DNA from: Bradyrhizobium roseum
GTDB taxonomy: Bacteria > Pseudomonadota > Alphaproteobacteria > Rhizobiales > Xanthobacteraceae
Assembly (NCBI RefSeq): GCF_030413175.1
Contig: NZ_CP129212.1
Coordinates: 3,348,001-3,412,000, forward strand
Direction: 5' to 3'
DNA length: 64,000 nt
A program made the translations under genes and the position numbers. The number at the start of each line of letters is the position of its first letter. Position 1 is the stretch's first letter. Shown here piece after piece: positions 1 to 63,169 of this stretch. The notes beneath the pieces were generated by a model. That model saw nothing but the letters and a program-made list of their open reading frames with translations, was not told the DNA's origin and made no database searches.

Positions 1-156
1 CCAGGCGGCGTCCGTACTTTTACGGGCCTGAAAGTTTGGCAGCTCGAGGCTGAAGTCGGATATGCAACGAGGCGCCGCTGCCGCGTCGCGCGATGCCGCC
101 GCCATGGCCTGATCAAAGCCCGTGCTTGTCCCATCACATCGCGACCGGGAGAGGCT

Positions 157-2046
157 ATGAAGATTTCCGGCCGTCTCGCGCTTGCGATGGTTTCGCTGGC
201 TGTGGCGACGTCTGGCATTGTCGGCGCTTTGGCGTGTTATTTCGTTGCCGAGGCTGCGTCGCGCGGGGTGTTGATCTCGATCGCGGGCGCCGCGCTGGCC
301 GGTGGCGGAATTGCGTCGGTGCTGGCGATGGCGCTTGCTGCCGGCATCGCCAGGAGGTTCCTAAGACCGCCGTCCGCGGATGACGTCACGGAAACCGTGC
401 GGGCCAGCGCCTATCAGGCGCTTGTCGATCGCGAGCGGATGGCGCAGGCGATCATCGAAAACGCGCTCGATGCCTTTGTCCAGACCGATGGATCCTGCGT
501 CGTTCTCGACTGGAGCCCGCATGCCGAAGCCTTGATGGGATGGACGCGCGCCGAGGCGGTCGGGCGGAGCGTGGAAGATCTGGTATTTCCTGAGGCGGAG
601 CGCCCCGTGCACCGGCAATGGGTCGACCGTTTTCTCAGCGAGGCATCGGGCGACGCCGCCGGCGGGCGATACGAAACACCGCTGCGGCACAAGGATGGAC
701 GCGAATTCTTTGCCGAGGTGTCGCTGACGGCGCTGCCCAGCGGCGAGGGCTACATCATCAACGCCTTCGTCAGGGACATCACCGAAAAGCGCGCGGCGGA
801 AGAACAATTGTTCCAGTCGCAGAAGATGGAATCGGTCGGGCAATTGACCGGCGGCATCGCCCACGACTTCAACAACATGCTCACCGTGATCACCGGCACG
901 ATCGAAATCCTGGCCGAAGGCGTCAAGCACGATCCGGCGCTGACCTCGATCACCAGGATGATCAACGACGCCGCCGACCGGGCGGCGCAACTCACGGCAA
1001 ACCTGCTGTCCTTCGCGCGCAAGCAGCCGCTGCGCCCGCTCGAGACCGACGTCAATGCGCTGATCGAGGAGGCGGTCAAGCTGCTGGCGCCGACGCTCGG
1101 AAGACAGATCGAGATCCAGACGGTGTTGAGCGATGAGGCCTGGCCGGCCCTGGTCGATCGCAGCCAGCTCACGTCGGCGCTGGTCAATCTGGCGATCAAC
1201 GCCCGCGACGCCATGCGCGATGGGGGGAAGCTGCTGTTCAGGACGGGAAATTTCACCCGCCACGCGAATGATGCGGAGGTGGGCGACCTCGGCGCCGGCG
1301 ACTACGTCACCATCGAGGTCATCGACAGCGGCGCCGGCATTCCGCTGGCGATTCGCGACCGGATTTTCGAGCCGTTCTTTTCGACCAAGCAGTTCGGCAC
1401 CGGCACCGGGCTGGGACTGAGCATGGTGTTCGGATTTGCCAAGCAATCCGGCGGCGCCGTCGTCGTCGACGGCGCGGAGAGCAAGGGCGCCTGCTTTCGC
1501 ATCTATCTGCCGAAAGCCGACGCCGGGCCATCCAACGCGCGGGCCACCGGCGATACCGCGATGCCCGACGATGACGAACTGATCGGCGGATCTGAAACGA
1601 TTCTCTGCGTCGAGGATGATGACGTCGTGCGCGCGCATGTCACAGGCCGCCTGCAAAGCCTCGGCTACACCGTCATCACGGCATCCCATCCGGCCGAGGC
1701 GCTCGACATCGTCAATGCCGGCGTGGCGTTCGATCTCCTGTTCACCGACATCGTCATGCCCGGTTCGATGAACGGGCGGCAGCTCGCGCAAAAGATCGCC
1801 GGGCTGCGGCCGCCGCTCCGGGTGCTCTACACCTCGGGCAATACGGTCGGCGCCCTTGCCAATGCGCGTCCCGGCGAGGGCGTGCTGCTCTTGAAAAAGC
1901 CGTATCGCAAGTCCGAACTGGCGCGCATGGTCCGCCTCGTCCTCGATCGCCCGATCGATCACATGGGCGACCCGATCCCGCTGCCCTATTCGGTGCAGGA
2001 GGATCTCGAGCGTTTCCTGCAGGAAAATCCGCCGAAGGGCGGATAG
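157..2046 (+). CDS. Hybrid sensor histidine kinase (PAS, HisKA, HATPase, receiver)
   Basis: Membrane-bound two-component kinase of 629 aa. Two hydrophobic segments (about residues 7-30 and 38-65) precede a PAS domain (about 90-215). The dimerisation box GGIAHDFNN carries the phospho-acceptor His236; the ATPase domain shows the N box ([10 protein letters not shown]), DSGAGIP and a G2-type TGTGLGLS motif. A C-terminal receiver (about 485-620) has its acidic pair in CVEDDD and phospho-acceptor Asp531 in FTDIVMPG. Autophosphorylation followed by transfer to its own receiver is the expected chemistry; no separate regulator gene is adjacent, so the output partner is unknown. The start has a GGGAGAGG ribosome site 4 bases upstream. 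The 156 bases before it hold no gene that can be supported. Confidence 0.9.
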
Positions 2047-23717: not shown

Positions 23718-23794
23718 GCGGGAGTAGCTCAGTTGGTTAGAGCGCCGCCCTGTCACGGCGGAGGCCGCGGGTTCGAGTCCCGTCTCTCGCGCCA
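23718..23794 (+). tRNA. tRNA-Asp (anticodon GUC), prophage attachment gene
   Basis: 77 bases with CCA. The acceptor GCGGGAG/CTCTCGC contains one G-T pair, the anticodon arm CCGCC/GGCGG encloses CTGTCAC (anticodon GTC), and the T loop is TTCGAGT. The integrase gene begins (by its 3' end) 72 bases past the CCA, so the 3' half of this tRNA is the expected attL core; the tRNA stays intact at this junction. Confidence 0.97.
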
Positions 23795-23866
23795 TTCTTT
23801 TCAATGGCTTAGCCGAAAAACCCCGGCCATTTTCCGACTCCCTGAAGGGCCACTTTCCGACTCTTT

Positions 23867-33990: not shown

Positions 33991-34917
33991 ATGTCGACCG
34001 CGCTCGTCGATCCGATGGCCTCGGTGCGCGCTTACTTGGCAGCCGAGAAGAGCAACAATACCCGCCGCGCCTATGGGGCTGACTGGGCCGATTTCACCGC
34101 CTGGGCCGACACTGTAAATCTGAACAGTATGCCGGCCGAGCCCGCCACCGTGGCGCGCTACCTGGCCCAGCTCGCCGACGGCGGCAAGAAGGCTTCCACG
34201 ATTCAGCGGCGCGTTGCTGCGATCCGCGCGGCGCACAAGGCCGCCGGCCATGAACCGCCGACCAACGCCGAGGGCGTCAAGGCGACCATGCGTGGCATCC
34301 GGCGCCGTCTCGGCGCCAGGCCAACCCGCAAGGCGCCGGCGACGGCCGAGGTGCTGGCGAAGATCCTCGAGAAGCTGCCGACCACGCTTGCGGGCCTGCG
34401 CGACCGCGCGCTCCTGCTGATCGGCTTTGCCGCAGCTCTGCGGCGTTCCGAGCTGGTTGACCTGGAGGTCAACGACATCGAGCGGCGGTCGCGCGGCATC
34501 GTGCTACAGATCCGCGGCTCGAAAACCGACCAGGAAGGCAAGGGCGAACTGATCCCGGTGCCGAACGGCCGCGAGTTGCGGCCCGTCGACGCGCTCGATG
34601 CGTGGCTCGGGGCTGGCGGAATCACCCAAGGGGCTATCTTTCGGAATGTCGATCGACACGGCCGCGTTGGATCCGCGGCGCTCTCCGATCGAGCAGTCGC
34701 CGATATCGTCAAGCGCGCGATCGCTAGCTGCGGGCTCGACGCCAAGCTGTTTTCCGGCCACTCGATGCGCGCCGGCTTTATCACCTCGTCCCTCGATCGA
34801 AAGGTCGATCTGTTCAAGATCATGAAGATCAGCCGGCATGTGAAGGTCGACACGCTTAAGGTCTACGACCGGCGGGAAAGTGGCTTTGATGATCACGCCG
34901 GCGGTGAGTTTCTCTGA
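33991..34917 (+). CDS. Second tyrosine recombinase (XerC/D-like)
   Basis: 308 aa with a complete catalytic set: Arg152 (FAAALRRSELVDLE), Lys178 (RGSKTDQEGK), His257 and Arg260 (FSGHSMRAGF), His283 (ISRHVKVDT) and Tyr292 (LKVYDRRE). The N-terminal SAM-like core-binding domain starts SVRAYLAAEKSNNTRRAY. It is unlike the tRNA-linked integrase and lies mid-element, rightward, between early and packaging genes. It could resolve genome multimers, act on a second site, or belong to a cargo cassette (a decayed copy of its C terminus lies 550 bases on). Confidence 0.9.
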   Translation: MSTALVDPMASVRAYLAAEKSNNTRRAYGADWADFTAWADTVNLNSMPAEPATVARYLAQLADGGKKASTIQRRVAAIRAAHKAAGHEPPTNAEGVKATMRGIRRRLGARPTRKAPATAEVLAKILEKLPTTLAGLRDRALLLIGFAAALRRSELVDLEVNDIERRSRGIVLQIRGSKTDQEGKGELIPVPNGRELRPVDALDAWLGAGGITQGAIFRNVDRHGRVGSAALSDRAVADIVKRAIASCGLDAKLFSGHSMRAGFITSSLDRKVDLFKIMKISRHVKVDTLKVYDRRESGFDDHAGGEFL

Positions 34918-49049: not shown

Positions 49050-50069
49050 ATGATGCCCCTTACCGCAGTCGAGAAGAACCAGGAGATCCTGTCTCTCGCG
49101 CTCGAGGATCGCTCCGCGGGCTACCAGGACCTGGTCTCAAACTCCAACGCCGCCCTGGCGGTGCTGAAGCGCAAAGGCCTGTGGGAGACCTATTCCGGTC
49201 CCCGCATCCGTCAGACGCTGCTCTACAACAAGACCGGCTCCGCGGTCTGGTACAACGGGTTCGACTTCCTCAACCCGCGCCCGGCCGAGCTGTTCAACGA
49301 CGCCGAATTCACCCCGAAGATGCTCGCGGTGGCCGTCGTGATGTCGAACGAGGAAATCCTCAACAACCAGGGCACCGCGCAGCTCAAGAACGTCATGAAG
49401 TCGCATATCAAGGCGGCCGAAATGGAGCTCGAGGACGTCACCGACGCCTCGATTCACTCCAACGGTTCGGGCTTCGGTGGCAAGGAACTCGGCGGTTTGC
49501 AGCTCGCGATTCCGACGATCACCAATACCGGCACCTATGGCGGTATCGATCGCGCGTCGAATGCGATCTGGCGGACGTCATCGTTCGATGCGCATACCTT
49601 CGCGCCCGACATCGGCACGCAGGTTACCGCGACCACGGTGCGCCCGATGTTCAACCGCATCATGACGCAGCGCTCCCGCAACAAGCGCGGCGCCGATCTG
49701 CTGTTGTGCTCGCGCCAGCATTATGAGGCGTACGACGCGGCCACGGTGGCGATCCAGCGCATCAACGACGAGACCCAGCTCGGCAAGCTCGGCTTCCAGA
49801 CGCTGAAGTACTTTGGCGGCGGACGCACGGCCGAGATCGTCCAGGACGGCGGCATCGGCTCCAACATGCCGGACAACGCGACCTACGGTCTCGACACCGA
49901 CAGCTTGCGCATGCGCTACCATCCCGAGCGCAACTTCTCGAAGATCGGCTCTTCCATGATGCCGATCAACCAGGACGCGGTCGTGCAGTACATCGGGCTC
50001 ATGGGCGAACTGACCATGGAAAACCCGCTGTTCAACTGGAAGCTCTACGACAGCAACCCGGCGGCCTGA
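49050..50069 (+). CDS. Major capsid (coat) protein
   Basis: 339 aa. HK97-fold features: an N-terminal arm, the long spine-helix region (AEMELEDVTDASIHSNGSGFGGKELGGLQLAIP) and conserved C-terminal PLFNWKLYDSN. Strong ribosome site (GGAGGG) and high-quality coding bias match a highly expressed structural gene. It follows the scaffold gene directly, as in P22-like phages. Confidence 0.88.
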   Translation: MMPLTAVEKNQEILSLALEDRSAGYQDLVSNSNAALAVLKRKGLWETYSGPRIRQTLLYNKTGSAVWYNGFDFLNPRPAELFNDAEFTPKMLAVAVVMSNEEILNNQGTAQLKNVMKSHIKAAEMELEDVTDASIHSNGSGFGGKELGGLQLAIPTITNTGTYGGIDRASNAIWRTSSFDAHTFAPDIGTQVTATTVRPMFNRIMTQRSRNKRGADLLLCSRQHYEAYDAATVAIQRINDETQLGKLGFQTLKYFGGGRTAEIVQDGGIGSNMPDNATYGLDTDSLRMRYHPERNFSKIGSSMMPINQDAVVQYIGLMGELTMENPLFNWKLYDSNPAA

Positions 50070-50164: not shown

Positions 50165-50668
50165 ATGGCCTTTGTACCCATGTCCCACGCGATCGGCATG
50201 CCGCCGATCGACCAGACGCTTCCCGCATTCACCGGAGCCGGCCGCTCCGCTCCCTGGAAGATCGGCGACATCATCAAGGCGGTCGACCCCGTGCTCGGCG
50301 TCGGCGAATTCATCTACCTGCAAGGCCTGGCGTCGACCGCGGTCAGCGAGATGGTGATCTACGACCACAACGCCGGCACCACCAAGCGGGCGGTGGCCGG
50401 CGATCGCGGCCCATGCGCGTTCGCCATGAGCGCCAACGTCGCCAGCCAGTTCGGCTGGTACCAGATCACGGGCCTGGCCAGGGTCAAGGCGGGCACCGTG
50501 GCGGCGAACGGTGCGCTCTACGCGACCGCAACCCCCGGCACCGTCGATGACGCCGTGGTCGCCGGCGACAAGGTCGACGGCGCGCGCTTCAAGACCGCCG
50601 ACGGCACGCCGGCGGCGGGCTTCGCCTACGCCATGCTCGATCGGCCCGCGCTGAACGGCAACGGCTAA
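50165..50668 (+). CDS. Capsid-associated (decoration-like) protein
   Basis: 167 aa, Gly/Ala/Val-rich beta pattern (GEFIYLQGLASTAVSEMVIYDHNAG, ARVKAGTVAANGALYATATPGTVDD) typical of small head decoration or fibre proteins next to the coat gene. GGAGGG precedes the ATG. The specific role is inferred from position. Confidence 0.65.
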   Translation: MAFVPMSHAIGMPPIDQTLPAFTGAGRSAPWKIGDIIKAVDPVLGVGEFIYLQGLASTAVSEMVIYDHNAGTTKRAVAGDRGPCAFAMSANVASQFGWYQITGLARVKAGTVAANGALYATATPGTVDDAVVAGDKVDGARFKTADGTPAAGFAYAMLDRPALNGNG

Positions 50669-50755
50669 CCGAGCGGCCGCCGCGGCTGTGCCCCTGGCCG
50701 CGGCGGCCACCCTTCCATTTCCCCTTTGCATTCCCTCAGACGGAGGAGATCCACC

Positions 50756-52356: not shown

Positions 52357-53975
52357 TGCGCCGCCCCGCGCAGCTCCGAAAACCTGCCGCGATCTCGGCG
52401 CCGACGCCGAAGACCGCCAAGCCCGCCACGTTCCCGGCGCCGGTGGGCGGCTGGATCAAGAACGCGGCGCTCGCAACGCCCGGCGCGCGATTGCCCGACG
52501 GCAGCAAGGTCAACGGCGCCTACATCCTCGACAACTGGTTTCCGACCACCACGGCTGTGCGCATGCGCGGCGGCTCGCAGGTGTTTGCCACGCTCGGCGA
52601 CGGCAGCCGCGACGTCGTCGCGATGTTCGCCTACGTCAACGGCAACAACAAGAAGCTGTTCGGCGCGACCTCGAATGCGATCTACGACGCGACATCAGGC
52701 GGCGCGATCGCGTCCGCGGCGGTTGGCAGCCAGACCGGCGGCGCCTGGTCGGCGGTGCAGTTCGCCACCTCCGGCGGCGTCTTCATCCGCGCGGTGAACG
52801 GCGCCGACCCGCCTCAGGTCTATGACGGCGCCAGCTGGTCGACCTCGCCGGCGATCACCGGCTCGGGCCTGACGCCGTCGACACTGTCGAATGTCTGGGT
52901 GCACCAAAAGCGCCTGTTCTTCATCCAGAAGGATACGCTCAACGCTTGGTACCTGCCGGCCGACGCGATCGGCGGCGTCGCGGTGGTGTTCCCGCTCGGC
53001 GGCGTGTTCAAGCTCGGCGGCGCGCTGCTGTTCGGGGCGACCTGGTCGATCGAGAGCGGTAGCGGCCTGACCGAGCTATGCGTGTTCGTCACCACCGAAG
53101 GCGAAGCCGCCATCTACCAGGGCACGGATCCGGCTTCGGCCTCGACCTTTTCCAAGGTCGGCGTCTACCGGATCGGCAAGCCGCTCGGGCCCAACGCGCT
53201 GATTAGCGCCGGTGGCGACCTCGCGATCGCGACCAATATCGGTCTGGTTCCGCTGTCGCAGGCCGTGCAGCGCGATTTCGCGGCGCTGTCGCCGATCGCG
53301 ATCTCCTACAAGATCGAGGAAGGCTGGAACGACGCCGTCGCCGACCGCATTTCGTCGGGCTGGAGCTGCGCGGTGTGGCCGACCAAGCAGCTGGTGCTGG
53401 TCGCACCCGCCGAGAGCAGCGCCGGCGAGCGGCCGGTGATGTTCGCCACCAACGCCCGCACCGGAAGCTGGGGCAGGGCGATCGGGTGGAACGGCCGCTG
53501 CCTGCAGCTGTTCGGTGACCGGATGTTCTTCGGCTCGACCGGCGGCAAGATTATCGAGGCCGAGGTCACTGGTGCCGACCAGGGCATGCCCTACACGTCG
53601 ACCTGCGTCTGGCTGTTCGATCCCCTGAAGGCCGCGGCTTCCCTGAAGACCTGTCTCCTGATGCGGGCGGTGATCCGCAGCGTAGCGCATATCCTTCCGC
53701 AGCTGTCGCTGCAGGCCGATTACGTGCTCAGCCTGCCGACGGCGCCCGACGACGCCGGCCTGCCGACCGGCAGCGTCTGGGGCACCGGCACCTGGGGCGT
53801 CAGCCTGTGGGGCGGCACCATCGAGCTTTCTGTGTTCAAGGATTGGCAGTCGGTCGGCGGCGCCGGCTATTCGATCGCGCCGGCGGTGCAGATCACGTCC
53901 GGCTCGATCGTGTCGCCGAAGGTCGAGCTGGTGCAGGTCGACATGACCTATGACCAGGGCGATATCGTTTCGTGA
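52356..53975 (+). CDS. Tail stabilisation protein (P22 gp10-like, beta-propeller)
   Basis: 539 aa. After a Pro-rich start, GGWIKNAALATPGARLPDGSKVNGAYILDNWFPTTTAVRMRGGSQ is the conserved opening of podoviral tail-hub proteins, followed by repeated beta blades (KKLFGATSNAIYDATSGG, FIRAVNGADPPQVYDGASW, NLVWVHQKRLFFIQ-type). It would sit below the connector and plug the head. Start fixed by the TGATG overlap. Confidence 0.72.
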   Translation: MRRPAQLRKPAAISAPTPKTAKPATFPAPVGGWIKNAALATPGARLPDGSKVNGAYILDNWFPTTTAVRMRGGSQVFATLGDGSRDVVAMFAYVNGNNKKLFGATSNAIYDATSGGAIASAAVGSQTGGAWSAVQFATSGGVFIRAVNGADPPQVYDGASWSTSPAITGSGLTPSTLSNVWVHQKRLFFIQKDTLNAWYLPADAIGGVAVVFPLGGVFKLGGALLFGATWSIESGSGLTELCVFVTTEGEAAIYQGTDPASASTFSKVGVYRIGKPLGPNALISAGGDLAIATNIGLVPLSQAVQRDFAALSPIAISYKIEEGWNDAVADRISSGWSCAVWPTKQLVLVAPAESSAGERPVMFATNARTGSWGRAIGWNGRCLQLFGDRMFFGSTGGKIIEAEVTGADQGMPYTSTCVWLFDPLKAAASLKTCLLMRAVIRSVAHILPQLSLQADYVLSLPTAPDDAGLPTGSVWGTGTWGVSLWGGTIELSVFKDWQSVGGAGYSIAPAVQITSGSIVSPKVELVQVDMTYDQGDIVS

Positions 53976-54358
53976 CCGATGTCATTCTGATCGACGACAG
54001 CGTGGCGCGGTTTGTCGGCGAGCGCTGCAACACGATCATCTACCCGCCGTTCACGGCGATGGGTATCGCGCGCGATGACGAGATCATCGGCGGCGTGGTG
54101 TTCAACTGCTTCACCCAGAACGACATCGCGGTGACGGTCGCCGGCCACGGCTTTACCCGCCGCTTCATCCGCGCCGTCGGCGCTTACGTGTTCCAGCAGC
54201 TTGGCTGTCTGCGGATGTCGATCACGACCGAGCAGGATAGCGTCGTCGATTATGCAAAGCGGCTTGGCGCTCAGACCGAAGGCAGGAAACGCAACCACTT
54301 CGGCCGGGGCCGACACGGTATCGTGCTCGGCATCCTGAAAGAGGATTGGAAGATCTGA
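53972..54358 (+). CDS. GNAT-like phage protein
   Basis: 128 aa, GTG start overlapping the previous stop (GTGA). IYPPFTAMGIARDDEIIGGVVFNCFTQNDIAVTVAGHGFTRRFIRAVGAYVFQQLGCLRMSITTEQDS follows the N-acetyltransferase fold seen in small proteins in podoviral tail operons. The acetyl-CoA loop is poorly defined, so enzymatic activity is uncertain. Confidence 0.65.
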   Translation: MTDVILIDDSVARFVGERCNTIIYPPFTAMGIARDDEIIGGVVFNCFTQNDIAVTVAGHGFTRRFIRAVGAYVFQQLGCLRMSITTEQDSVVDYAKRLGAQTEGRKRNHFGRGRHGIVLGILKEDWKI

Positions 54359-55377
54359 TGGACACGCCTTCGCCGCCGCCAGCGCCGGATCCGGTCGCCA
54401 CCGCCAAAGCCCAGGGCGACATGAACGCCAACACTGCGATCACCTCGCAGCTGTTGAACCAGACCGACCAGGTCACGCCCTACGGCACGCTCAAATACGA
54501 TCAGACCGGCTCGTCGACCTTCACCGGCGCCGACGGCAAGACCTATACCGTGCCGAAGTTCCAGGCGACGCAGACGCTGTCGCCGACCGAGCAGGCGCTG
54601 TTCGACCTCGCCAACAAGACCAAGACCAACCTCGGGCAGATCGGCGTCGACCAGTCGGCGAAAATCGGCTCGCTGCTCGGCACCAACGTCAATCTCGACA
54701 CCGCGGCCGAGGACAAGATCAACAAGCTGGCTTCGGCGCGGCTCGATCCGCGCTTTGCCCGCGACGAGGACGCGCTGCGGACCCGCCTGACCAACCAGGG
54801 CATCCAGCCGGGCTCGCAGGCCTGGAACGCCGAGATGACCAATTTCCAGCAGGGCCGCAACGATGCCTATAACCAGCTGGCGCTGACCGGCCGCTCGCAG
54901 GGCGTCTCGGAGGCGCTCGCCGAGCGCAACCAGCCGATTAACGAGATCAGTGCGCTGTTGAGCGGCTCGCAGGTCTCGCAGCCGAACTTCGCCGCCACGC
55001 CGCAGACCAACGTCGCCGGCGTCGACTACACCGGGCTGGTCAACAACAACTACAATGCGGCCAACCAGCAGTACAACGCTCAGGTCGGCCAGCAGAACGC
55101 CATGATGGGTGGCATGTTCGGCCTGGCCGGCACGCTCGGCTCGGCTGGCATGAAATACGGCCCTGGCCTGATGGCGATGTCCGACCGTCGCCTCAAGTCC
55201 GACATCGTCCGGATCGGCACCACGCCGCATGGCCTGCCGTTCTACGAATATTCGATCTTCGGCCGGCGCGAGCAGGGCGTCATGGCCGACGAGGTCGAGG
55301 CGGTCATGCCTGAAGCGGTCGCCGTGCACCCGAGCGGTTTCAGGATGGTCGATTACCGCATGTTGGGGCTGCGCTGA
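54358..55377 (+). CDS. Tail protein with C-terminal Peptidase_S74 (intramolecular chaperone) domain
   Basis: 339 aa. The N-terminal region (Gln/Asn/Thr-rich; LNQTDQVTPYGTLKYDQTG, RLTNQGIQPGSQAWNAEMTNFQQGR) is typical of internal tail/ejection proteins. The last 65 residues (SDRRLKSDIVRIG ... GVMADEVEAVMPEAV ... MVDYRML) are the S74 chaperone domain, which trimerises tail fibres and cleaves itself at the Ser of SDRRLK. Start shares the previous stop (TGATG). Confidence 0.75.
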   Translation: MDTPSPPPAPDPVATAKAQGDMNANTAITSQLLNQTDQVTPYGTLKYDQTGSSTFTGADGKTYTVPKFQATQTLSPTEQALFDLANKTKTNLGQIGVDQSAKIGSLLGTNVNLDTAAEDKINKLASARLDPRFARDEDALRTRLTNQGIQPGSQAWNAEMTNFQQGRNDAYNQLALTGRSQGVSEALAERNQPINEISALLSGSQVSQPNFAATPQTNVAGVDYTGLVNNNYNAANQQYNAQVGQQNAMMGGMFGLAGTLGSAGMKYGPGLMAMSDRRLKSDIVRIGTTPHGLPFYEYSIFGRREQGVMADEVEAVMPEAVAVHPSGFRMVDYRMLGLR

Positions 55378-56822
55378 TGGCGGAAAGCAACTCACCGTTC
55401 GTCTGGGGTGCCGCGGGCGAGCAGCTGACGCCCGGCCAGATCGCCGCGCGCCGCAAGGTCGCCGAGGCGATGATCGCGCAAGGCGGCGACTATTCGCCGA
55501 TCCGATCGGCCTGGCAGGGCGCCGCACGCATCGCGCAGGGCCTGCTCGGTGGGCTTGACGCCCGCGAGGCCGACAAGGCCGAAGCCGCCAACGCGACCGC
55601 CGAGCGGCAGATCATCGCAGCGATGCTGGCGGGCGCCGGCGGAGGGTCGGCTTCAAATGCCGCGCCGGCCGCCAGCCCTGCGCCGCCCGTTGCGTCGCCG
55701 ATGCCGCCCGCGGCTTCGGTGCCGTCCGGTCCGGACGCACCAGTGACTCCCGTAAGCCGTTCGGCGGTGCTTCCGAGCGCCAGGGTGTGGGGCGACAAGG
55801 AGGCGGAGGACGCCGGGATCTACGAGAAGCCGGCTTCCGGCGTGGCGACGGTGGCGGCGGCGATGCCCAAGCAGTCCGCCTCGGTGCCGGCCGCGGCGCC
55901 CGCCGGGCCCGCCAACCCGGGCGTCGCGACGGTCGCGGCCGGGATGAACCCGGCGATCGTGCAGGCGGTATCTTCGCCTTACGTCTCCGACCGCACCCGC
56001 AGCCTCGGGATGACCATGCTGGCCGCGGCGATGAAGCCGAAGGAAAAATTCACCCAGGAGACGGACGCCGCCGGCAACGTCTGGAACGTCAATGGGCTCA
56101 CGGGCGAGCGAAAGCTCGAGCTGAAGAGTGAAAAGCCGGAGGAGGCGTCGCGTCCGATCACGGCCGAGGAGCGCCGCGCCTACGGCATTCCTGACGGTAT
56201 GGCGGTGGCGATGACCAAGAACGGACCGAAGGCGATCGGCACCGGGCCCGGGACCACGGTCAATGTAGGCGGCGGTTCGGACAAGCAGATCTTTGATGCC
56301 TTCGACGAGCGCGCCAAGCTGGCGAAGTCGGCGGCGACGGGTCTCGTCGCGCTGCGCGATGCCCGCGCGGCGCTCGATTCAGCCGGCGGCGCCATCACCG
56401 GCGCCGGTGCCGACACCAAGCTGTTGCTGTCGAAAGCGGGTGCCGCGTTCGGCATCACCGATCCGAAGGCGGCCGAGAATACCGAAACGTTTCGCGCGGC
56501 GATCGCGCCGCAGGTCGCCGCGATGCTCAAGAGCACGGTGGGCACGACGAACATTTCCAACAGCGACCGCGAATTCGCAGAGAAGGCCGCTGGCGGATCG
56601 ATCACGCTCGAGGCCGGCTCGATCAAGCGGCTGCTCAACATCATGGAGCGCGCCGCGGTCGCACGCCTTCAGGAACACCAGGAACAGCTCGACGCGGTCT
56701 ATCCGGATCCCGAAAAGCACAAGCGCGAGCGCGCGCTGTTCGGCGTGAAGGTGCCGGACCTGGCCGCCCCGCCGCCGCCCGCCGGCGCGACCAAAACCGG
56801 CGTCAAGTGGAGCGTTGAATAG
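55377..56822 (+). CDS. Internal virion / DNA-ejection protein
   Basis: 481 aa. Ala/Pro-rich with a low-complexity centre (residues 85-190), then the helical part TTNISNSDREFAEKAAGGSITLEAGSIKRLLNIMERAAVARLQEHQEQLDAVYPD. Long Ala-rich helical proteins at this place of the tail operon are ejection proteins in P22-like phages (equivalent of gp7/gp16/gp20). Function assigned by position. Confidence 0.6.
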   Translation: MAESNSPFVWGAAGEQLTPGQIAARRKVAEAMIAQGGDYSPIRSAWQGAARIAQGLLGGLDAREADKAEAANATAERQIIAAMLAGAGGGSASNAAPAASPAPPVASPMPPAASVPSGPDAPVTPVSRSAVLPSARVWGDKEAEDAGIYEKPASGVATVAAAMPKQSASVPAAAPAGPANPGVATVAAGMNPAIVQAVSSPYVSDRTRSLGMTMLAAAMKPKEKFTQETDAAGNVWNVNGLTGERKLELKSEKPEEASRPITAEERRAYGIPDGMAVAMTKNGPKAIGTGPGTTVNVGGGSDKQIFDAFDERAKLAKSAATGLVALRDARAALDSAGGAITGAGADTKLLLSKAGAAFGITDPKAAENTETFRAAIAPQVAAMLKSTVGTTNISNSDREFAEKAAGGSITLEAGSIKRLLNIMERAAVARLQEHQEQLDAVYPDPEKHKRERALFGVKVPDLAAPPPPAGATKTGVKWSVE

Positions 56823-59008
56823 TGGCCACGCTCAACATCGAAGGGCGCAAGGTCACCGTCGACGACAGCTTCCTGAAGTTGTCGCCAGACGAGCAGAATG
56901 CGACCGTCGAAGAGATCGCGAAGTCGCTGGCGCCTCGGGCGCCGGCCGCGCCGCCGCTGCTGGCGCAGGCCGCGGCCGCGGCGCCGACCGAGCCGATCGC
57001 AGCAGCAGCGCCGTCCGCCGACGGTAGTTTCAGCGATACGGTGCGCGCGATTCGCGACGCCGTGCATGCGCCGACGCGGATCCTCGAGAACGGCATTCTG
57101 CTCGGCCTCGGCGACCGTGCACGCGCCGGGATGGGCGCGATCATTGGCGAGGGCCGGCCGAAACTCAGCGGGCTGGTGACCGGAGAGGAGAGCGGTTATG
57201 GCGGACTCCTGAAACGGGAGCAGGCCGAAACCGAGCGGTTTCAGAAGGAGCATCCGATCGCGGCGCCGGCGGCGGAAATCGTCGGCGGCGCGATGTCGCC
57301 GGTCGGTGCGATCGCCGCAGCCGGCAAGGGCGTCTCGCTCGGCGCCAAGACGCTCTATGCGGCGCTTGCGGGCGGCGGCATCGGCGGTCTGCAGGGCGGA
57401 TTCTCTTCGAAGGACTGGACCGATGTCGCACAGACCGCAAAGGACACCGCGGTCGGTGGCCTTGTCGGCGGCACGCTTGGCGCAGCCATTCCCGGCGCGG
57501 CCAAGGTGGTCGGATCCGGCTACAACCTGATCGCCAACGCAATCCGCGGCCGCGCCGAGGGCATGTCGCGGGGCGCGAGCAAACATCTGGTGAACGCCAT
57601 GGAAGCCGACACGCCGGCGGCCGTGAAAGCCGAGCTTCAGCGGCTCGGGCTCGACGCCATGCTGGCCGACTCGGGACCGACGATGTTGGGCAAGACGCAG
57701 GGCGCGGCATTGCTGTCCGACGAAGGGCGCACGGTGGCGACCAATGCGCTCAAGGGTCGCGACACCGGCACGAATTCCCGAATTATGGATGACGTCGAGC
57801 GCGCGTTGGGCCCGGCGGAAGATCCGGCGACGGCGACGCGCAATATCATCGACTACCGCTCCCATGTCGATTCGCAGAACTATCCGCGGGTGCTGCGCGC
57901 TGCGCAGCCGGTCCGGACCGCGCCGCTGATGGTCGAGCTCGAGGACGCGATCATCAGCGCGCCACACGGCGGCGCCGAACGGCGCGCGCTGGAACATCTG
58001 CAGCAGATGCTGACGCGCGAGCAGCTCCGGCCGCGCCCGGATCCGTTCGCTCCGGGGCGCCAGGCGCTCGATGCCAACGGCCAGCCAGCGTTCGATCGCA
58101 TTCGCGTCAACCAGGACCGGGCCGAGGTGCTGCACAAGGTCAAGCAGGAACTCGACAACGTGATCGAGCACGATGCGCCGGGCCTGGGCATCCAGGCCGG
58201 CGCCCTGCGTAATCAGCAGGCCCAGTTGAAGCGCTTCCGGCATGACCTCAACCAGGCGCTCGAGAACCAGGTCGACGGCTACGCGCGTGCCAACCGGGTT
58301 TCGGAGCGGCTGGCACGGCGCGCCGAGGCAGTGAAAGAGGGCACCGGCTACCTCGGCGAAGGCAGGACCACGCCGTCGCCGGCGCGCTTCCGCGATGAGC
58401 ACGAGCAGCGCGACGTCGGCACGCGGATCGCATTCGCGAAGGGCAGCCGCGGCGAGATCGACCGCAAGCTCGGGACCAAGGCCAACGACCTGCAGGCGCT
58501 ACGCGCCGAGTTGCAGGGCGAGGGCGGCTGGAACACGGAAAAGATCGCGACGGTACACGGCGACGATGCGGCCCGCCAGCTGATGGATACCGTGGAGCGC
58601 AACCTCAAATTCCGCGACACCCACACCAAGGTGGTCGAGAATTCGCAGACCGAGATCCGCAGATCCGCCCGCGAGGCGATGAAACCGACCAACGCCGGCG
58701 ATGGGCCGATGATTCATTCTGGCGCGACTTCTACCGGTCTGGTGGCGACCGCAGCCAAGAAGGCGGTGGCGGCGATCGCCAACGCGATGCTGCGGACCGA
58801 TCCGACCAAATCCTACGGCGAGGTGGCGCGGGTGTTGACAACGCAGGGCGCGCAGCGCGATGCGCACTACCAAGCGATCCTAAACGCCCTGGAGCGGCGC
58901 AATGAGAACAGCGCTATCGCATCGACGGTGGGCGATCGTTCAGCTCTCGCAGCGTCGATCGCCGCGAGCGCGCTTCTAAATGATCGTATGCGAAAGCACC
59001 GGCAATAG
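56822..59008 (+). CDS. Large internal virion / ejection protein
   Basis: 728 aa, GTG start sharing the previous stop. The first 40 residues (ATLNIEGRKVTVDDSFLKLSPDEQNATVEEIAKSL) are a repeat-like domain common in podoviral ejection proteins. Next comes a Gly/Ala-rich stretch that could insert in membranes (IGGLQGGFSSKDW, AVGGLVGGTLGAAIPGAAKVVG). The long helical remainder has no enzymatic motif that I recognise. It probably forms part of the trans-envelope ejection channel. Its 3' end overlaps an opposite-strand small gene. Confidence 0.65.
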   Translation: MATLNIEGRKVTVDDSFLKLSPDEQNATVEEIAKSLAPRAPAAPPLLAQAAAAAPTEPIAAAAPSADGSFSDTVRAIRDAVHAPTRILENGILLGLGDRARAGMGAIIGEGRPKLSGLVTGEESGYGGLLKREQAETERFQKEHPIAAPAAEIVGGAMSPVGAIAAAGKGVSLGAKTLYAALAGGGIGGLQGGFSSKDWTDVAQTAKDTAVGGLVGGTLGAAIPGAAKVVGSGYNLIANAIRGRAEGMSRGASKHLVNAMEADTPAAVKAELQRLGLDAMLADSGPTMLGKTQGAALLSDEGRTVATNALKGRDTGTNSRIMDDVERALGPAEDPATATRNIIDYRSHVDSQNYPRVLRAAQPVRTAPLMVELEDAIISAPHGGAERRALEHLQQMLTREQLRPRPDPFAPGRQALDANGQPAFDRIRVNQDRAEVLHKVKQELDNVIEHDAPGLGIQAGALRNQQAQLKRFRHDLNQALENQVDGYARANRVSERLARRAEAVKEGTGYLGEGRTTPSPARFRDEHEQRDVGTRIAFAKGSRGEIDRKLGTKANDLQALRAELQGEGGWNTEKIATVHGDDAARQLMDTVERNLKFRDTHTKVVENSQTEIRRSAREAMKPTNAGDGPMIHSGATSTGLVATAAKKAVAAIANAMLRTDPTKSYGEVARVLTTQGAQRDAHYQAILNALERRNENSAIASTVGDRSALAASIAASALLNDRMRKHRQ

Positions 59009-59141
59009 CGCAGCCGGTGATGCTGAGGCAGATCACCGCGAACGGGCCGAATCCCCACACATCGAGCGCCTGCATGAGGCCGTACTTCAGCGCAGCGATG
59101 AACGCCGCGAGCACGCCGGTGCAAATGAGGATCCGTACCAT
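58914..59141 (-). CDS. 75-aa two-helix membrane protein on the opposite strand
   Basis: Two hydrophobic helices (RILICTGVLAAFIAALKYGLM and PFAVICLSITGCAIAGAFAY) joined by a short loop, with a basic C-terminal tail. AGGAGCGAGG precedes the ATG closely. It overlaps 95 bases of the ejection-protein gene in antisense. It could be a lysogen-expressed membrane protein such as a superinfection-exclusion factor, or an antisense-oriented holin-type protein. Function unknown. Confidence 0.55.
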   Translation of the reverse strand: MVRILICTGVLAAFIAALKYGLMQALDVWGFGPFAVICLSITGCAIAGAFAYDHLEARSRRSTLRELNDRPPSMR

Positions 59142-59219
59142 CCTCGCTCCTAGTCCGATTCCGCGAAAATCTCAAAGCCTTTTGTTCGGCCTTCGTTCTT
59201 TTTCAGGGGATGCCTGCGC

Positions 59220-60113
59220 ATGCCATCAGACGCAAACGGCAATTATGCGCTGCCTGCCGGATACCTGGCCATTACCGGCCAGACGATCCAGCCGAGCCAG
59301 CACAACCCGCCGCTGGAAGACATCGCCACGGCGATGACGGCGCGGCTGTCCGTCAACGGCGCCAACCCGATGACGGGCCCGCTCAAGCTCGCCGACGGCC
59401 TGGTCGGCGCGCCGAGCCTCACGTTCAACACCGCGCAGACGACGGGCTTCTACAAGACCGCCGGCGGCAATATCGGCGTGGCGATCGCGGGCGCCGAGAC
59501 GGTGGAATTCGGACCCTCCGGCATCCACAAGGGCGGCAAGCTGATCGGCGAGCTGTTCGACTGGACCGGCACCACCGCGCCGGCGCTGTGCGTGCTGCCG
59601 TTCGGCCAGACCCTGTCGCGCACGGCCTATGCGGATCTCTGGGCCTTTGCGCAGATCCAGATCGCGGCCGGCAACACGCTTTACAACAACGGTAACGGCA
59701 CCACGACCTTCGGCATCATGGACCAGCGCGGCCGCGTGCGCGCCTGCAAGGACGACATCGGCGGCGTGGCCGCTGGCCGCCTGACCTCGACCTATTTCGG
59801 CGCCAGCGCCGTCACGCTCGGCAACGTCGGCGGCCTGGAGAGCCACACACTGACCACGCCGCAGCTCGCCGCGCACAATCATGGCATCACCGATCTCGGA
59901 CATTTTCACGGCGGCGTCATGACGGGAACGAACGCTGCAGCCAGCGTTGGCGGTCAGGTCGTTGGTTCCGGGGTCGCCCAGTACGGAATCAGAGATCAAA
60001 ATTCTTCCTCGGCTACCACCGGCATCACGATCAACAACGCCGGCACCGGCACCGCGCACAACAACGTGCAGCCGACGATCATCGTCAACGTCGCGCTGTT
60101 CGCCGGCGCCTGA
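59220..60113 (+). CDS. Tail collar-domain protein
   Basis: 297 aa. Phage collar/tail-fibre architecture: N-terminal LSVNGANPMTGPLKLADGLVGAPSLTF repeats, the collar segment LPFGQTLSRTAYADLWAFAQI ... GTTTFGIMDQRGRVRACKDDIGG, and C-terminal HNHGITDLGHFHGG metal-binding histidines, ending NNVQPTIIVNVALFAGA. Such proteins form the trimeric tail tip that touches the cell surface. Confidence 0.85.
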   Translation: MPSDANGNYALPAGYLAITGQTIQPSQHNPPLEDIATAMTARLSVNGANPMTGPLKLADGLVGAPSLTFNTAQTTGFYKTAGGNIGVAIAGAETVEFGPSGIHKGGKLIGELFDWTGTTAPALCVLPFGQTLSRTAYADLWAFAQIQIAAGNTLYNNGNGTTTFGIMDQRGRVRACKDDIGGVAAGRLTSTYFGASAVTLGNVGGLESHTLTTPQLAAHNHGITDLGHFHGGVMTGTNAAASVGGQVVGSGVAQYGIRDQNSSSATTGITINNAGTGTAHNNVQPTIIVNVALFAGA

Positions 60114-60137
60114 TCTGCAAACTCCACGGAGCATCTG

Positions 60138-60851
60138 ATGACCGACCTCAACGCCCTCACCAGGGCGAATGCGAAGCGCTGGGCCGATGCCAGGCTGACG
60201 CGCAATTTCACCGCCGTCGCCCGCCGCCTGGTCGCGCCAGCCGCCAAGGCCAGGTACCAGGCCGTCGCCGTCAAAACCGGCGTGCCGTGGGCGGTGATCG
60301 CGGTCATCCATCAGCGCGAGAGCTCGCAGGACTGGACCGGATCGCTGGCGCAGGGCGATCCCTGGGACCGGGTTTCGGTGCACGTGCCGGCCGGCCGCGG
60401 GCCGTTCTGCTCCTGGGAAGAGGCGGCGATCGACGCGCTGGTCAACTGCGCGCCCTATGCCGCCCGCAACAAGGACTGGAGCATCGGCGGGACGCTCGCG
60501 ATGCTCGAGCGGTACAACGGCCTCGGATATGCCAGTAAGGGCCGGCCGTCGCCCTATATCTGGGCCGGCACCGATCAGTACGTCAGTGGCAAATACGTCC
60601 GCGACGGCGTCTACGATCCCAATGTCGTCGACAGCCAGCTCGGCTGCGCCGGCCTGCTCATCACCATGATGAAGCTAGATCCCACGATCAAGTTCGCGGG
60701 CGCGGCCGCGATCGCGCCGCCGGTGGTACCGAAGCCGCAACCGGCGCAGGCGCCCGCCGCCAAAACTCCGGCCTCCATCACCAACCCGGCGAAGGGCTCG
60801 ATCGGCGCCGTCATCGCCAACATCCTCACCGCCATCTTAAAAGGAAAATAG
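60138..60851 (+). CDS. Endolysin (lysozyme-like muramidase)
   Basis: 237 aa. VPWAVIAVIHQRESSQDWTGSLAQGDPWDRVSVHVPAGRGPF resembles a family of phage lysozyme-like lytic enzymes with Glu in HQRESS as probable catalytic acid, followed by WEEAAIDALVNCAP and LAMLERYNGLGYASKG (substrate cleft). A Pro/Ala linker leads to a hydrophobic C-terminal helix (IGAVIANILTAIL), possibly a membrane anchor. It lies before the holin-like genes, so host lysis is the role. Confidence 0.8.
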   Translation: MTDLNALTRANAKRWADARLTRNFTAVARRLVAPAAKARYQAVAVKTGVPWAVIAVIHQRESSQDWTGSLAQGDPWDRVSVHVPAGRGPFCSWEEAAIDALVNCAPYAARNKDWSIGGTLAMLERYNGLGYASKGRPSPYIWAGTDQYVSGKYVRDGVYDPNVVDSQLGCAGLLITMMKLDPTIKFAGAAAIAPPVVPKPQPAQAPAAKTPASITNPAKGSIGAVIANILTAILKGK

Positions 60852-60853
60852 CC

Positions 60854-61210
60854 ATGTGGTCGTTCGTCCTCATCGTTCCGGGCCTGGTTGTCGCTTACCT
60901 GATGTTCGTTCGGCCGGTGCTGCGCGCCGTGCCGGCGTTCAGGTCGTTCTATGCCGAGGCCGACAGTGTCTGGCAGAAGGTGTGGGCGGTCTGCGGCAAG
61001 TCGCTGACCGTGGCCTGGTCGTACCTGGTGCTGGCCGCCAGCACCGTCCTCAGCCAGATCGACTTGCTCGCGGCGACGCTCGGCGACCCAAATTTCAAGG
61101 AGCAGGTCACGGGCGTGATCGGCACCGACCCGAAGGTGCTGGGCTATTTCGCCATGGTCGTTTCGACGGTCACGATCGCCGCGCGGCTGCGCTCCATCGG
61201 CAAGGCCTAA
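60854..61210 (+). CDS. Membrane protein of the lysis cassette
   Basis: 118 aa. An N-terminal helix (FVLIVPGLVVAYLMFV) and two further hydrophobic segments (LTVAWSYLVLAASTVLSQI; VLGYFAMVVSTVTIAA). Small multi-span protein between endolysin and holin-like genes: a second holin or antiholin is possible. It starts two bases after the endolysin stop. Confidence 0.6.
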   Translation: MWSFVLIVPGLVVAYLMFVRPVLRAVPAFRSFYAEADSVWQKVWAVCGKSLTVAWSYLVLAASTVLSQIDLLAATLGDPNFKEQVTGVIGTDPKVLGYFAMVVSTVTIAARLRSIGKA

Positions 61211-61214
61211 GCCG

Positions 61215-61598
61215 ATGTGGATGACGATCATCAGCTTCGTCGGCGGGCCGGTCATCAAGGGCCTGATCGAGGCCTATCAGGCCAAGCTTGCGGCCGGCAA
61301 CACCTCGGAAAAGATCGCCAGCGAAACGGCCTCCGCCGAAATCGCGGCGCAGGTCTCCGAAACCAACGCGATCATGCAATACCGCATCGCCGAGATCGGG
61401 CACTGGTACGAACCCGACAAGCTGATGGGTTATTTCGTGGCCATCTATTTCGGAAAACTCCTGATCTGGGACAAGGTGCTCGGGCTCGGCGTCACCGATC
61501 CGCTGGCGGGATTCGCCTCGGTGACCTCGAACCTGGTGGTCTCGTTCTATTTCGCCAAGCGTGGCTTTGAAAACGTGGCAAGGATCATCAAGCGATGA
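61215..61598 (+). CDS. Holin-like protein
   Basis: 127 aa. N-terminal amphipathic/hydrophobic helix (MTIISFVGGPVIKGLIEAY), polar helix (AGNTSEKIASETASAEIAAQV), then LMGYFVAIYFGKLLIWDKVLGLG and a last helix with SVTSNLVVSFYFAKRGFENV. The pattern fits a family of alphaproteobacterial phage holins. It lies after the endolysin and is followed at once by the XhlA-like gene through a 9-codon bridge. Confidence 0.65.
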   Translation: MWMTIISFVGGPVIKGLIEAYQAKLAAGNTSEKIASETASAEIAAQVSETNAIMQYRIAEIGHWYEPDKLMGYFVAIYFGKLLIWDKVLGLGVTDPLAGFASVTSNLVVSFYFAKRGFENVARIIKR

Positions 61599-61857: not shown

Positions 61858-61881
61858 TCGACTAATTGGATCAATCCATCG

Positions 61882-61916
61882 ACGCCGTCGGCACCGCGCC
61901 GGCGGCGTTTCGTTTC
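61882..61916 (+). terminator. Terminator of the late/lysis operon
   Basis: An 11-bp stem (ACGCCGTCGGC with GCCGGCGGCGT, one G-U pair, 5-base loop) followed by TTCGTTTC, 24 bases after the last lysis gene. It separates the rightward late operon from the convergent cargo gene. Confidence 0.6.
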
Positions 61917-61963: not shown

Positions 61964-63061
61964 TCAGTCATCTTTCGTTGGCTCGTTCCCAGCCGCCTTC
62001 GATCGCAATTTGGCGCGAGCGCGCTTGTCGAGTCGGACGGTCATGGCCTGATGTCGTTTTGAGTTTGACTGAAGAAGCTCCGGAACATTGAACACCAGCT
62101 TGCCTGCCATTCCATAGCTCGGGTCTTGGTAGTCTATGTCCCAAGTAAAAAATGCGCTGTTCGCTCGATGATGACATTCCTTGTACCGCAGTCCTGATTT
62201 GCAAGGGCACAGCTTATTGCGTCCGACCAACGGCACCGCCAGAAACGGTCCGTTGTCTACGGCCGTGCTGTATGTCATGGCATTATTTCCCCGAACGTTC
62301 GGTGGGGTGGCAACAATCTCGGCTGGATAGTAGATCGAACGCTGCGGCGCCAGAACGTGGTAATCGCACGTTGCGGGGGTCGCCCAACTGTTCGGGAAGG
62401 TGATGCTGCTGACTTGGCCTCCTATAATCCTGCTGCGCTTGGAGGCCTTTTGAACGAGCCGTACAAGTCTCGCACGGACGGCGAGTGCTGTCAGCCTGGG
62501 GGCCTGCTCTCTCAGTTCGATGAACTGATCCCCATCAAGTGCTGTCGTGTCTCCGATCGCAAATCCCCAAGAAGCAAGGTCCTCCGGGAAATCTGCGAAG
62601 AATGGCCGAAATTCGTCCCATGCTTCAGCCGCATCTTCGCCCGTTTCCAGATTTTGAAAATTCGAGATAAACCCGAACGTTGGACGGTCGACTTCATACC
62701 GCCGGCGGAAGCCGATCATCAGCAGGCTGAACCGGCGCAGGCGGCGCGAAATTCCCCGAATTTGCGGGTCTTTGAGAAAGTCGGCGTTCAATCGCTCCGT
62801 TAAACGGGAGAAAAGGTGAGGGGGGGTAAGGAGAAAATCCGGCAAGGCGCATGATCTGATATGGTCAAGAAGCCTGATTTTTGAGTTGTATCGGCCGGCC
62901 GTCGCCAGCCCGGAAAAACTGATCGCCACTCGCGCTTCGCGGGTCATCAAGAGGCACATTTTGTCAAATTCGTCGTTTGCTTGGAATCCGTTGGCGCTGG
63001 TTCGCCGATCGGAAACAAGGCACGTAAACTCGCGTGTTAAGATCCCCAGGCCCAGTGTCAT
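61964..63061 (-). CDS. Proteasome-type Ntn-hydrolase-like protein with SEC-C zinc motif
   Basis: 365 aa from MTLGLGILTREF, where GGGAGGT lies 7 bases before the ATG (an ATG 27 bases earlier lacks a site). If the initiator Met is removed, Thr1 is N-terminal and Asp17 (LVSDRRTS) and Lys33 (EFDKMCL) fall at exactly the Thr1-Asp17-Lys33 positions of proteasome beta/HslV subunits; the following strand VAISFSGLATAG fits the fold. The middle is helical. Near the C terminus VGRNKLCPCKSGLRYKECHHR is a SEC-C zinc motif (from about residue 279). A peptidase or amidohydrolase role is inferred. It is an isolated opposite-strand gene between lysis and right-end genes, of lower GC. Confidence 0.72.
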   Translation of the reverse strand: MTLGLGILTREFTCLVSDRRTSANGFQANDEFDKMCLLMTREARVAISFSGLATAGRYNSKIRLLDHIRSCALPDFLLTPPHLFSRLTERLNADFLKDPQIRGISRRLRRFSLLMIGFRRRYEVDRPTFGFISNFQNLETGEDAAEAWDEFRPFFADFPEDLASWGFAIGDTTALDGDQFIELREQAPRLTALAVRARLVRLVQKASKRSRIIGGQVSSITFPNSWATPATCDYHVLAPQRSIYYPAEIVATPPNVRGNNAMTYSTAVDNGPFLAVPLVGRNKLCPCKSGLRYKECHHRANSAFFTWDIDYQDPSYGMAGKLVFNVPELLQSNSKRHQAMTVRLDKRARAKLRSKAAGNEPTKDD

Positions 63062-63169
63062 GGGTGGTACCTCCCGATCCGTCAGCATATGCTAGATTGG
63101 CGCTCGGGAAGAGGCGCTGGGATTGCTTGGGCACTTAATGCACCGGAAATGCTGTGCGCCGGCAGAAGC

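What the first reader, a model, noticed from the sequence alone, without database searches (positions are those of the whole stretch)
61964..63061. Prophage cargo gene encodes a proteasome-type Ntn hydrolase fused to a SEC-C zinc motif
With the ribosome-site-supported start, Met removal leaves Thr1, and Asp17 and Lys33 then fall at the exact spacing of the Thr-Asp-Lys site of HslV/proteasome beta subunits. The strand VAISFSGLATAG fits the expected next element. The C-terminal CPC...CH SEC-C motif is usually a protein-binding zinc module. The gene stands alone on the opposite strand in a classic cargo place, with a 10-bp palindrome (63084-63093) 23 bases upstream of its ATG. I know of no described phage-borne system with this combination; host-protein degradation, superinfection immunity or toxin-like action are open options.
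Basis: partly seen in the sequence, partly recalled or inferred. Interest (0 to 1): 0.85.

Follow-up and report, generated by a model that had tools for sequence, protein, structure and literature searches.

The report
Prophage proteasome-like hydrolase with zinc tail
A virus lying dormant in a soil bacterium's chromosome carries a gene for a relative of the cell's protein-shredding proteasome, joined to a small metal-binding tail; distant relatives sit in a similar place in other dormant viruses, one of which is reported to transcribe the gene while dormant, so it may help to keep rival viruses out.

Summary

New here: profile-profile comparison (99.3%) ties the family to hypothetical proteins of Gordonia phages in a similar opposite-strand slot. 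One, CarolAnn gp36, lies among genes published as transcribed in the lysogen, which also shows phage exclusion not explained by its defence genes 43/44. Some cellular relatives sit in proviruses or beside restriction genes; five of 16 are broken or degenerate. Most likely a lysogen-expressed N-terminal-Thr hydrolase for exclusion or defence; activity, substrate and function are untested.

The parts
61964..63061 (-). CDS, 365 aa: proteasome-like Ntn domain plus SEC-C plus a 66-residue C-terminal tail
62345..63058 (-). proteasome-like domain, about residues 2-239, the stretch aligned to proteasome beta chains
   Evidence: AlphaFold2 model; VIA-align rows aligning model 2..239 to beta residues 1..192
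63056..63058 (-). codon of Thr2, predicted nucleophile Thr1 after Met removal
   Evidence: 67 of 68 rows Thr, one Ser
63008..63010 (-). codon of Asp18 (proteasome Asp17)
   Evidence: 70 of 70
62960..62962 (-). codon of Lys34 (proteasome Lys33)
   Evidence: 69 of 70
62909..62911 (-). codon of Gly51, likely oxyanion-hole glycine (proteasome Gly47 region)
   Evidence: 70 of 70; assignment by position, inferred
62165..62221 (-). SEC-C motif, residues 281-299 (CPC...CH)
   Evidence: Pfam PF02810, 26.9 bits; SecA tail peptides in PDB
63070..63075 (-). Shine-Dalgarno GGGAGG, 8 nt before ATG
61881..61909 (+). hairpin followed by a T-rich tail between the + strand lysis cassette and the cargo gene (terminator-like)
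   Evidence: the number of terminator-like sites is not above shuffles
23741..23795 (+). left 55-bp attachment repeat within tRNA-Asp; the right copy lies 4.2 kb beyond the window
49050..50069 (+). major head protein of the prophage
   Evidence: phrog_9953 E 1.5e-79
33991..34917 (+). tyrosine integrase inside the prophage
   Evidence: PF00589, phrog_1

Best explanation
A cargo (moron) gene of a temperate phage encodes a stand-alone, proteasome-type N-terminal-threonine hydrolase. Host methionine aminopeptidase exposes Thr1, which with Asp17 and Lys33 forms the active site; no propeptide has to be removed. The C-terminal SEC-C metal motif serves as a protein-binding module that brings in a partner or substrate. 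The gene lies on the strand opposite the late genes, behind a terminator-like hairpin, and is expected to be expressed in the lysogen, where it cuts (or re-joins, as the relative connectase does) a specific protein, most likely one of an infecting phage or a host factor it needs: exclusion or defence. Shown: predicted fold, conserved catalytic residues, SEC-C, prophage place, foreign composition. Published for a distant relative: transcription in a lysogen (CarolAnn genes 34-36). Inferred: catalytic activity, role of SEC-C, defence function, substrate.
For: Fold and residues. SEC-C. Prophage bounds and foreign composition (GC 0.553, GC3 0.615; 4 of 434 windows of equal length as low in GC). 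Relatives in phage settings: P0004 on an IMG/VR contig, a terminase 2.9 kb from G219's copy and an S49 peptidase 1.3 kb from the Flavobacteriaceae copy. Profile-profile match of the family (A1) to A5, which holds Gordonia phage Nymphadora gp30, CarolAnn gp36, a mycobacterial plasmid protein and two cellular relatives: 99.3%, E 1.7e-20, 209 columns. In Nymphadora, CarolAnn and Ruthy the gene stands between tail genes and the integrase/repressor region, in the repressor's orientation and against most tail genes. CarolAnn lysogen RNA-seq shows genes 34 to 36 transcribed at lower level; Woes, Monty, Huffy, Vendetta, UmaThurman, Utz, Blueberry and Wizard are hindered by the lysogen but plate normally on a strain carrying only genes 43-45 (PMC6426606, sections 6-8 read). 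A close gp36 homologue is in CarolAnn, Blino and Ruthy only (6 of 50,697 records), not in the six other cluster CV phages whose lysogens were tested; those records are held. Restriction genes within 3 kb at 3 of 15 genomes, 0.09 expected (families chosen after seeing them).
Against: No activity has been measured for any member that I know of. CarolAnn gp36 lacks SEC-C and is 17-26% identical to the rows of A8 other than Ruthy; direct BLASTP of the window protein finds Nymphadora and CarolAnn only at E 0.03 and 0.1, so function may differ. Genes 34, 35, 38 and 39 of CarolAnn could equally explain the unassigned exclusion. No AAA+ unfoldase neighbour was recognised (the prophage has one HerA/terminase-like ATPase gene), and isolated proteasome subunits are inactive until assembled (PMC8665760). 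SecB, the known SEC-C partner, is absent from 6 of 14 host genomes, four of which hold an intact SEC-C copy. PADLOC models match 7 of 10 scanned members only in SEC-C and 3 not at all. Five of 16 cellular copies are broken or degenerate, one beside a Pup ligase gene; several have no phage or defence neighbour that I recognised.
Confidence: 0.47

Rival explanations
1. Lysogen-fitness or host-takeover enzyme: the hydrolase turns over or processes a host protein (stress response, secretion quality control, repressor regulation) rather than excluding phages. SEC-C would dock it on ribosomes or secretory chaperones.
For: The SecA SEC-C domain binds SecB (PMC8076867, passages read) and SecB is present in 8 of 14 genomes examined, including this host. 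Relatives occur in records from several phyla.
Against: SecB is lacking in 6 of 14 genomes, four of them with an intact SEC-C copy. Very patchy distribution (6 of 265 genomes of the genus, two of those copies broken) and mobile or defence neighbours fit accessory exclusion better than housekeeping.
Confidence: 0.27
2. Specific protein ligase or transpeptidase, like connectase: the Thr1 acyl-enzyme is resolved by another protein's amine, modifying rather than degrading a target.
For: Same fold class and triad; connectase is a monomeric proteasome homologue that ligates (PMC8665760). No unfoldase partner was recognised.
Against: Two helices stand in the model where H1 and H2 are expected, whereas connectase lacks the first pair; a connectase-type insertion was not looked for.
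Confidence: 0.12
3. Lytic-cycle or virion-associated phage protein (processing of a structural protein).
For: It lies next to the end of the late operon.
Against: Opposite strand to the late genes with a terminator-like hairpin between; foreign composition; in CarolAnn the relative is transcribed in the lysogen (PMC6426606).
Confidence: 0.08
4. Catalytically dead or decaying gene without selected function.
For: Five of 16 cellular copies are impaired: frame-broken G249 and a remnant in G082, an interrupted start region in Pseudohongiella and a copy split over two frames in a Terriglobia MAG, and an Opitutaceae copy that lost the Thr, Asp and Lys.
Against: The window copy is intact with all catalytic residues and a good ribosome site.
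Confidence: 0.06

Closest known systems
Proteasome-like homologues of Fuchs, Alva and Lupas 2021 (PMC8665760): PPH, RPC, AAH, DAH
   Same: N-terminal Thr with Asp17/Lys33 on the proteasome fold; no propeptide; PPH and AAH occur in phages and their hosts (results and discussion read).
   Different: PPH is about 140 aa and PPH/RPC lack helix H2; this protein has 365 aa and two helices at that place. SEC-C, SWIM and zinc occur 0 times in that paper's main text. AAH and DAH could not be compared: their alignments are not held here.
Anbu
   Different: 12% identity; not recognised by profile comparison (but that test also fails for Anbu against HslV); C-terminal SEC-C; phage neighbourhood.
HslV and proteasome beta subunits
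   Same: Fold and triad register (weak profile alignment).
   Different: No PF00227 match; no propeptide; SEC-C added.
Gordonia phage Nymphadora gp30 and CarolAnn gp36 (annotated as hypothetical proteins)
   Same: Same family by profile, similar strand and slot, Thr2/Asp18/Lys invariant; Nymphadora is the best viral structure match (TM 0.61/0.76).
   Different: No SEC-C-like stretch; actinobacterial host; direct BLASTP similarity not significant.
SEC-C (SecA-like metal-binding) proteins such as SecA, YecA, YchJ
   Same: Motif and ligands.
   Different: Main domain is an Ntn hydrolase.

Membership tests
Proteasome-like N-terminal-Thr hydrolases (wide sense) | alpha-beta-beta-alpha proteasome fold | tested here: met
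Proteasome-like N-terminal-Thr hydrolases (wide sense) | Thr1, Asp17, Lys33 and oxyanion glycine conserved | tested here: met
   Gly51 by position; active-site distances not measured
Proteasome-like N-terminal-Thr hydrolases (wide sense) | catalysis from Thr1 | not testable with these tools
   needs protein
HslV / proteasome beta (PF00227) | match to Pfam PF00227 | tested here: not met
   only SEC-C found at E <= 1; in the own genome PF00227 finds one place, HslV-like, elsewhere
HslV | HslU partner gene beside it | tested here: inconclusive
   no HslU-like gene seen by eye among neighbouring ORFs; only chosen neighbours were scanned, one being HerA/terminase-like
HslV / Anbu | profile-profile similarity | tested here: inconclusive
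   A2-HslV 6.5%, A2-Anbu 0.6%; known pair Anbu-HslV scores 0.2% with the same shallow profiles
PPH (Fuchs 2021) | about 140 residues, no helix H2 | tested here: not met
   365 aa, helices 60-72 and 83-95
RPC (Fuchs 2021) | no helix H2, C-terminal extension | tested here: not met
   second helix present in the model, by my own assignment; extension present
AAH or DAH (Fuchs 2021) | similarity to the published subfamily alignments | not testable with these tools
   alignments deposited elsewhere, not held
SEC-C motif | CxC...C[HC] at Pfam cut-off | tested here: met
   26.9 bits, cut-off 20.4
Prophage cargo (moron) | inside an integrated phage, opposite strand, foreign composition | tested here: met
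Prophage-encoded defence system | expressed in the lysogen | not testable with these tools
   for the distant CarolAnn homologue published as transcribed (PMC6426606)
Prophage-encoded defence system | reduces plating of unrelated phages | not testable with these tools
   needs experiment
Known defence families (PADLOC 2.0.0) | match of the main domain | tested here: not met
   10 members scanned: 7 match E2-type or PDC-S12 models in the SEC-C stretch only, 3 match nothing

The most novel reading that the evidence does not exclude
Temperate phages of Alphaproteobacteria and Actinobacteria share a one-gene, proteasome-derived immune protease (or ligase), expressed in lysogens, that recognises and processes a protein of competing phages; in the SEC-C branch the metal finger supplies targeting. 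CarolAnn gp36 would account for the exclusion of Woes and Monty that genes 43/44 do not explain.
Probability: 0.3. Interest if true: 0.87.

Novelty: new variant of a known kind. Interest (0 to 1): 0.64.

Why it matters
The 2021 survey that described 22 new proteasome-homologue subfamilies reports limited clues to function and no genomic context suggestive of one (PMC8665760). Here a divergent, SEC-C-bearing family is found in prophage cargo slots and, at some loci, beside restriction genes, and a relative lies in a genetically tractable phage whose lysogen shows unassigned exclusion. That makes the function of a proteasome homologue directly testable by one gene deletion and one point change, and could add proteasome-type hydrolases to the known effectors of phage competition.

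Tried and rejected
The 10-bp palindrome as a regulatory signal: 182 such palindromes in the window; no sigma-70-like promoter found, and that scan does not cover all promoter types. SecB as the general SEC-C partner: absent in 6 of 14 genomes, of which four have an intact SEC-C copy, one a copy split over two frames and one a degenerate copy. Profile comparison with HslV and Anbu: uninformative, control pair fails. Relatives of the window protein in phages and plasmids by tblastn at E 0.01: none. IMG/VR scans with P0001, A4, P0055, P0033: no relatives; with Nymphadora gp30 and P0004: one 100% identical record each. Genome contigs with P0001: none; with A4: 7 loci. The first genome survey with the whole alignment A1 was swamped by matches in the SEC-C part of frames of about 960 aa, which I take for SecA (191 of 197 genomes), so the SEC-C part was cut off for A3. 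The ORF of about 80 codons directly upstream of the gene in three Gordonia phages as a partner: two of the three were scanned and belong to phrog_6153, unknown function; I saw no counterpart in the window but made no search for one.

Limits of the neighbourhood count: 16 cellular loci were looked at (9 from the genome search, 7 from genome contigs); I sent 30 chosen proteins from them to Pfam (one of the 30 is a homologue itself), not all neighbours. The 3-of-15 restriction count leaves out G082, uses three families picked after seeing the neighbours, several contigs are short, and one of the three copies (Terriglobia) is split over two frames. HslV, HslU and nuoA labels in fetched loci are by eye, from no call.

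Paper searches on which 'not in print' rests: (open-licence PMC only). Papers: PMC8665760 outline, passages, results and discussion read; PMC6426606 outline, passages and sections 6, 7, 8 and 13 read; PMC8076867 and PMC13022661 passages only; others seen as listings.

Full report
What is there. Window 61964-63061(-) is a 365-codon gene whose ATG follows GGGAGG at 8 nt. After Met removal residue 1 is Thr, 17 Asp, 33 Lys. Pfam finds only SEC-C (PF02810, 26.9 bits, residues 281-299); PF00227 (proteasome) does not match the protein, and in the own genome it finds a single HslV-like place elsewhere.

Homologues. One protein search gave 9 proteins including the query, a profile search 69; their union is the 70 rows of A2. 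Of rows with a residue at the position, Thr2 is kept in 67 of 68 (one Ser), Asp18 in 70 of 70, Arg19 and Arg20 in 70 of 70, Lys34 in 69 of 70, Gly51 in 70 of 70. These rank among the most conserved columns together with the SEC-C cysteines. The residue before the Thr is M in 61, V in 5 and L in 2 of 68 rows, all readable as start codons; two rows (P0058, P0064) are predicted with an upstream extension. This speaks against a propeptide.

The element. A 55-bp copy of the tRNA-Asp 3' part lies at window 23741-23795 and again at what would be window 68184-68238: a 44-kb prophage, with a gene that reads like nuoA (by eye) 1.8 kb beyond. Between the repeats are a terminase small subunit, major head protein, integrase and tail proteins. 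The gene adjoining the tRNA (23867-25234) matched no Pfam or PHROGs family. Late genes run on the + strand to 61857; a terminator-like hairpin follows (the number of terminator-like sites is not above shuffles); the cargo gene faces it on the - strand. Its GC is 0.553 and GC3 0.615; eight late genes from 49050 to 61598 have GC3 0.83-0.91; other prophage genes reach down to GC3 0.65-0.77; 4 of 434 equally long prophage windows are as GC-poor. I read this as a recent arrival.

Distribution. With an Ntn-only alignment (A3), 6 of 265 genomes of the genus match, 3 of 398 drawn from the phylum and 3 of 397 drawn from the order, the own genome counted each time. Of the six in the genus one copy is frame-broken near its start (G249) and one is a remnant of about 34 residues beside prophage-like genes (G082). 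Seven more loci came from genome contigs, from records titled Flavobacteriaceae, Pseudohongiella, Desulfobacterales, Bacteroidetes, Nitrospinota, Terriglobia and Opitutaceae. Of these seven, four are intact with Thr, Asp, Lys and SEC-C; the Pseudohongiella copy is interrupted near its start, the Terriglobia copy is split over two frames, and the Opitutaceae copy has lost the Thr, Asp and Lys. So five of the 16 cellular copies are impaired; draft assemblies may account for some.

Neighbourhoods of the 16 cellular loci. Prophage or provirus evidence: the window; G116 = P0004, which lies on the 64,784-bp IMG/VR contig UViG_2513237094; G219, terminase 2.9 kb away; the Flavobacteriaceae copy, S49 peptidase 1.3 kb away on the other strand, suggestive only. 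Restriction genes within 1 kb: G821, HsdM 82 bp downstream followed by HsdS and HsdR, with AbiEii and a resolvase upstream; Terriglobia, N6/N4 methylase with a XhoI-type endonuclease behind it; Bacteroidetes, GmrSD. T5orf172 genes lie near 3 loci (L044, L045, L055). In G821 the adjacent HsdM is the only N6_Mtase match of the genome, and in the Terriglobia genome the adjacent methylase is the only N6_N4_Mtase match. Over 15 genomes, 0.09 loci within 3 kb of these three families are expected and 3 were seen (Poisson 1.3e-4); the families were picked after seeing them, so this is suggestive only. Not in favour: for G249, G473 and the Desulfobacterales copy I recognised no telling neighbour; G640's copy (no SEC-C) lies 1.6 kb from HslVU (by eye) with a RhuM gene on the other side; the degenerate Opitutaceae copy lies by a Pup ligase gene.

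Phages. The best viral structure match is Gordonia phage Nymphadora gp30 (TM 0.61/0.76). Weak tblastn hits from two family members lead to Nymphadora-type phages (E 0.02) and to CarolAnn, Blino and Ruthy (E 1e-3; other hits of that search lay in SEC-C). Alignment A5 (Nymphadora gp30, a Mycobacterium marseillense plasmid protein, P0070, CarolAnn gp36, G640) against A1 gives 99.3%, E 1.7e-20 over 209 columns; A1 and A5 share no sequence. Direct BLASTP of the window protein gives E 3e-4 for the plasmid protein, 0.03 for Nymphadora and 0.1 for CarolAnn, so the link rests on the profiles. Thr2, Asp18 and the Lys are invariant in A8 (13 rows). In Nymphadora, CarolAnn and Ruthy the gene stands between the tail genes and the integrase/repressor region, in the repressor's orientation and against the tail genes, except that Ruthy's gp32, called a minor tail protein, shares its strand. 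None of the three has a SEC-C-like stretch.

Published data on CarolAnn (PMC6426606; sections 6, 7, 8 and 13 read). RNA-seq of the lysogen shows the repressor operon 43-45, genes 38-39 and, at somewhat lower level, genes 34 to 36. Genes 43/44 explain exclusion of cluster CZ and some CQ phages; [quoted passage not shown] for Huffy the effect is mainly on plaque size. In Table 1, Woes and Monty are reduced on the CarolAnn lysogen only, of seven cluster CV lysogens. A close gp36 homologue is found in CarolAnn, Blino and Ruthy only (6 of 50,697 records); the six other CV phages are in the collection, and five larger proteins from the central regions of four of them do not begin like this family. 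The link of gp36 to that exclusion is my inference; genes 34, 35, 38 and 39 are equally open.

SEC-C. In SecA this domain binds SecB, and YecA and YchJ bear it too (PMC8076867, passages). SecB is present in 8 of 14 host genomes examined and absent in 6 (some are draft MAGs); four of those six hold an intact SEC-C copy, so SecB cannot be the general partner. PADLOC models matched 7 of 10 scanned members, only in SEC-C: E2-type proteins of candidate defence systems and PDC-S12. SEC-C tails are thus shared with some defence-associated proteins, which is a lead and no more.

Verdict. Phage-borne proteasome homologues were known as PPH and AAH (PMC8665760); PPH and RPC are excluded by size or helix H2; AAH and DAH could not be tested. 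I call it a new variant of a known kind: a SEC-C-fused, phage-associated proteasome-like family, at some loci beside restriction genes, with a tractable relative.

Noticed in passing
window 34974-35366: DUF2513 gene (PF10711; phrog_585) in the same prophage with GC 0.54, GC3 0.65: a second low-GC cargo candidate.
   Followed up: no
window 45594-46328 (-): FkbM-type methyltransferase on the opposite strand among the prophage's late genes, GC3 0.72; possible surface-modifying cargo.
   Followed up: no
L060:9514-10413: Opitutaceae homologue that has lost the Thr, Asp and Lys but keeps SEC-C, convergent with a Pup ligase gene.
   Followed up: partly
L048:8441-12973: SEC-C-less relative in G640 lies 1.6 kb from genes that read like HslV and HslU (by eye); perhaps chance.
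   Followed up: no
L044, L045, L055: T5orf172 (GIY-YIG-like, recalled) genes near three separate family members.
   Followed up: partly
L058:7668-8270: PRiA4_ORF3 gene directly upstream of the Nitrospinota copy.
   Followed up: no
window 23867-25234 (-): 455-aa gene next to the tRNA-Asp attachment site with no Pfam or PHROGs match; an unrecognised recombinase would be expected there.
   Followed up: partly
L050:6693-6929, L051:6749-6991, L052:5713-5976: Small ORF directly upstream of the gene in three Gordonia phage genera; phrog_6153, unknown function, in the two tested.
   Followed up: partly
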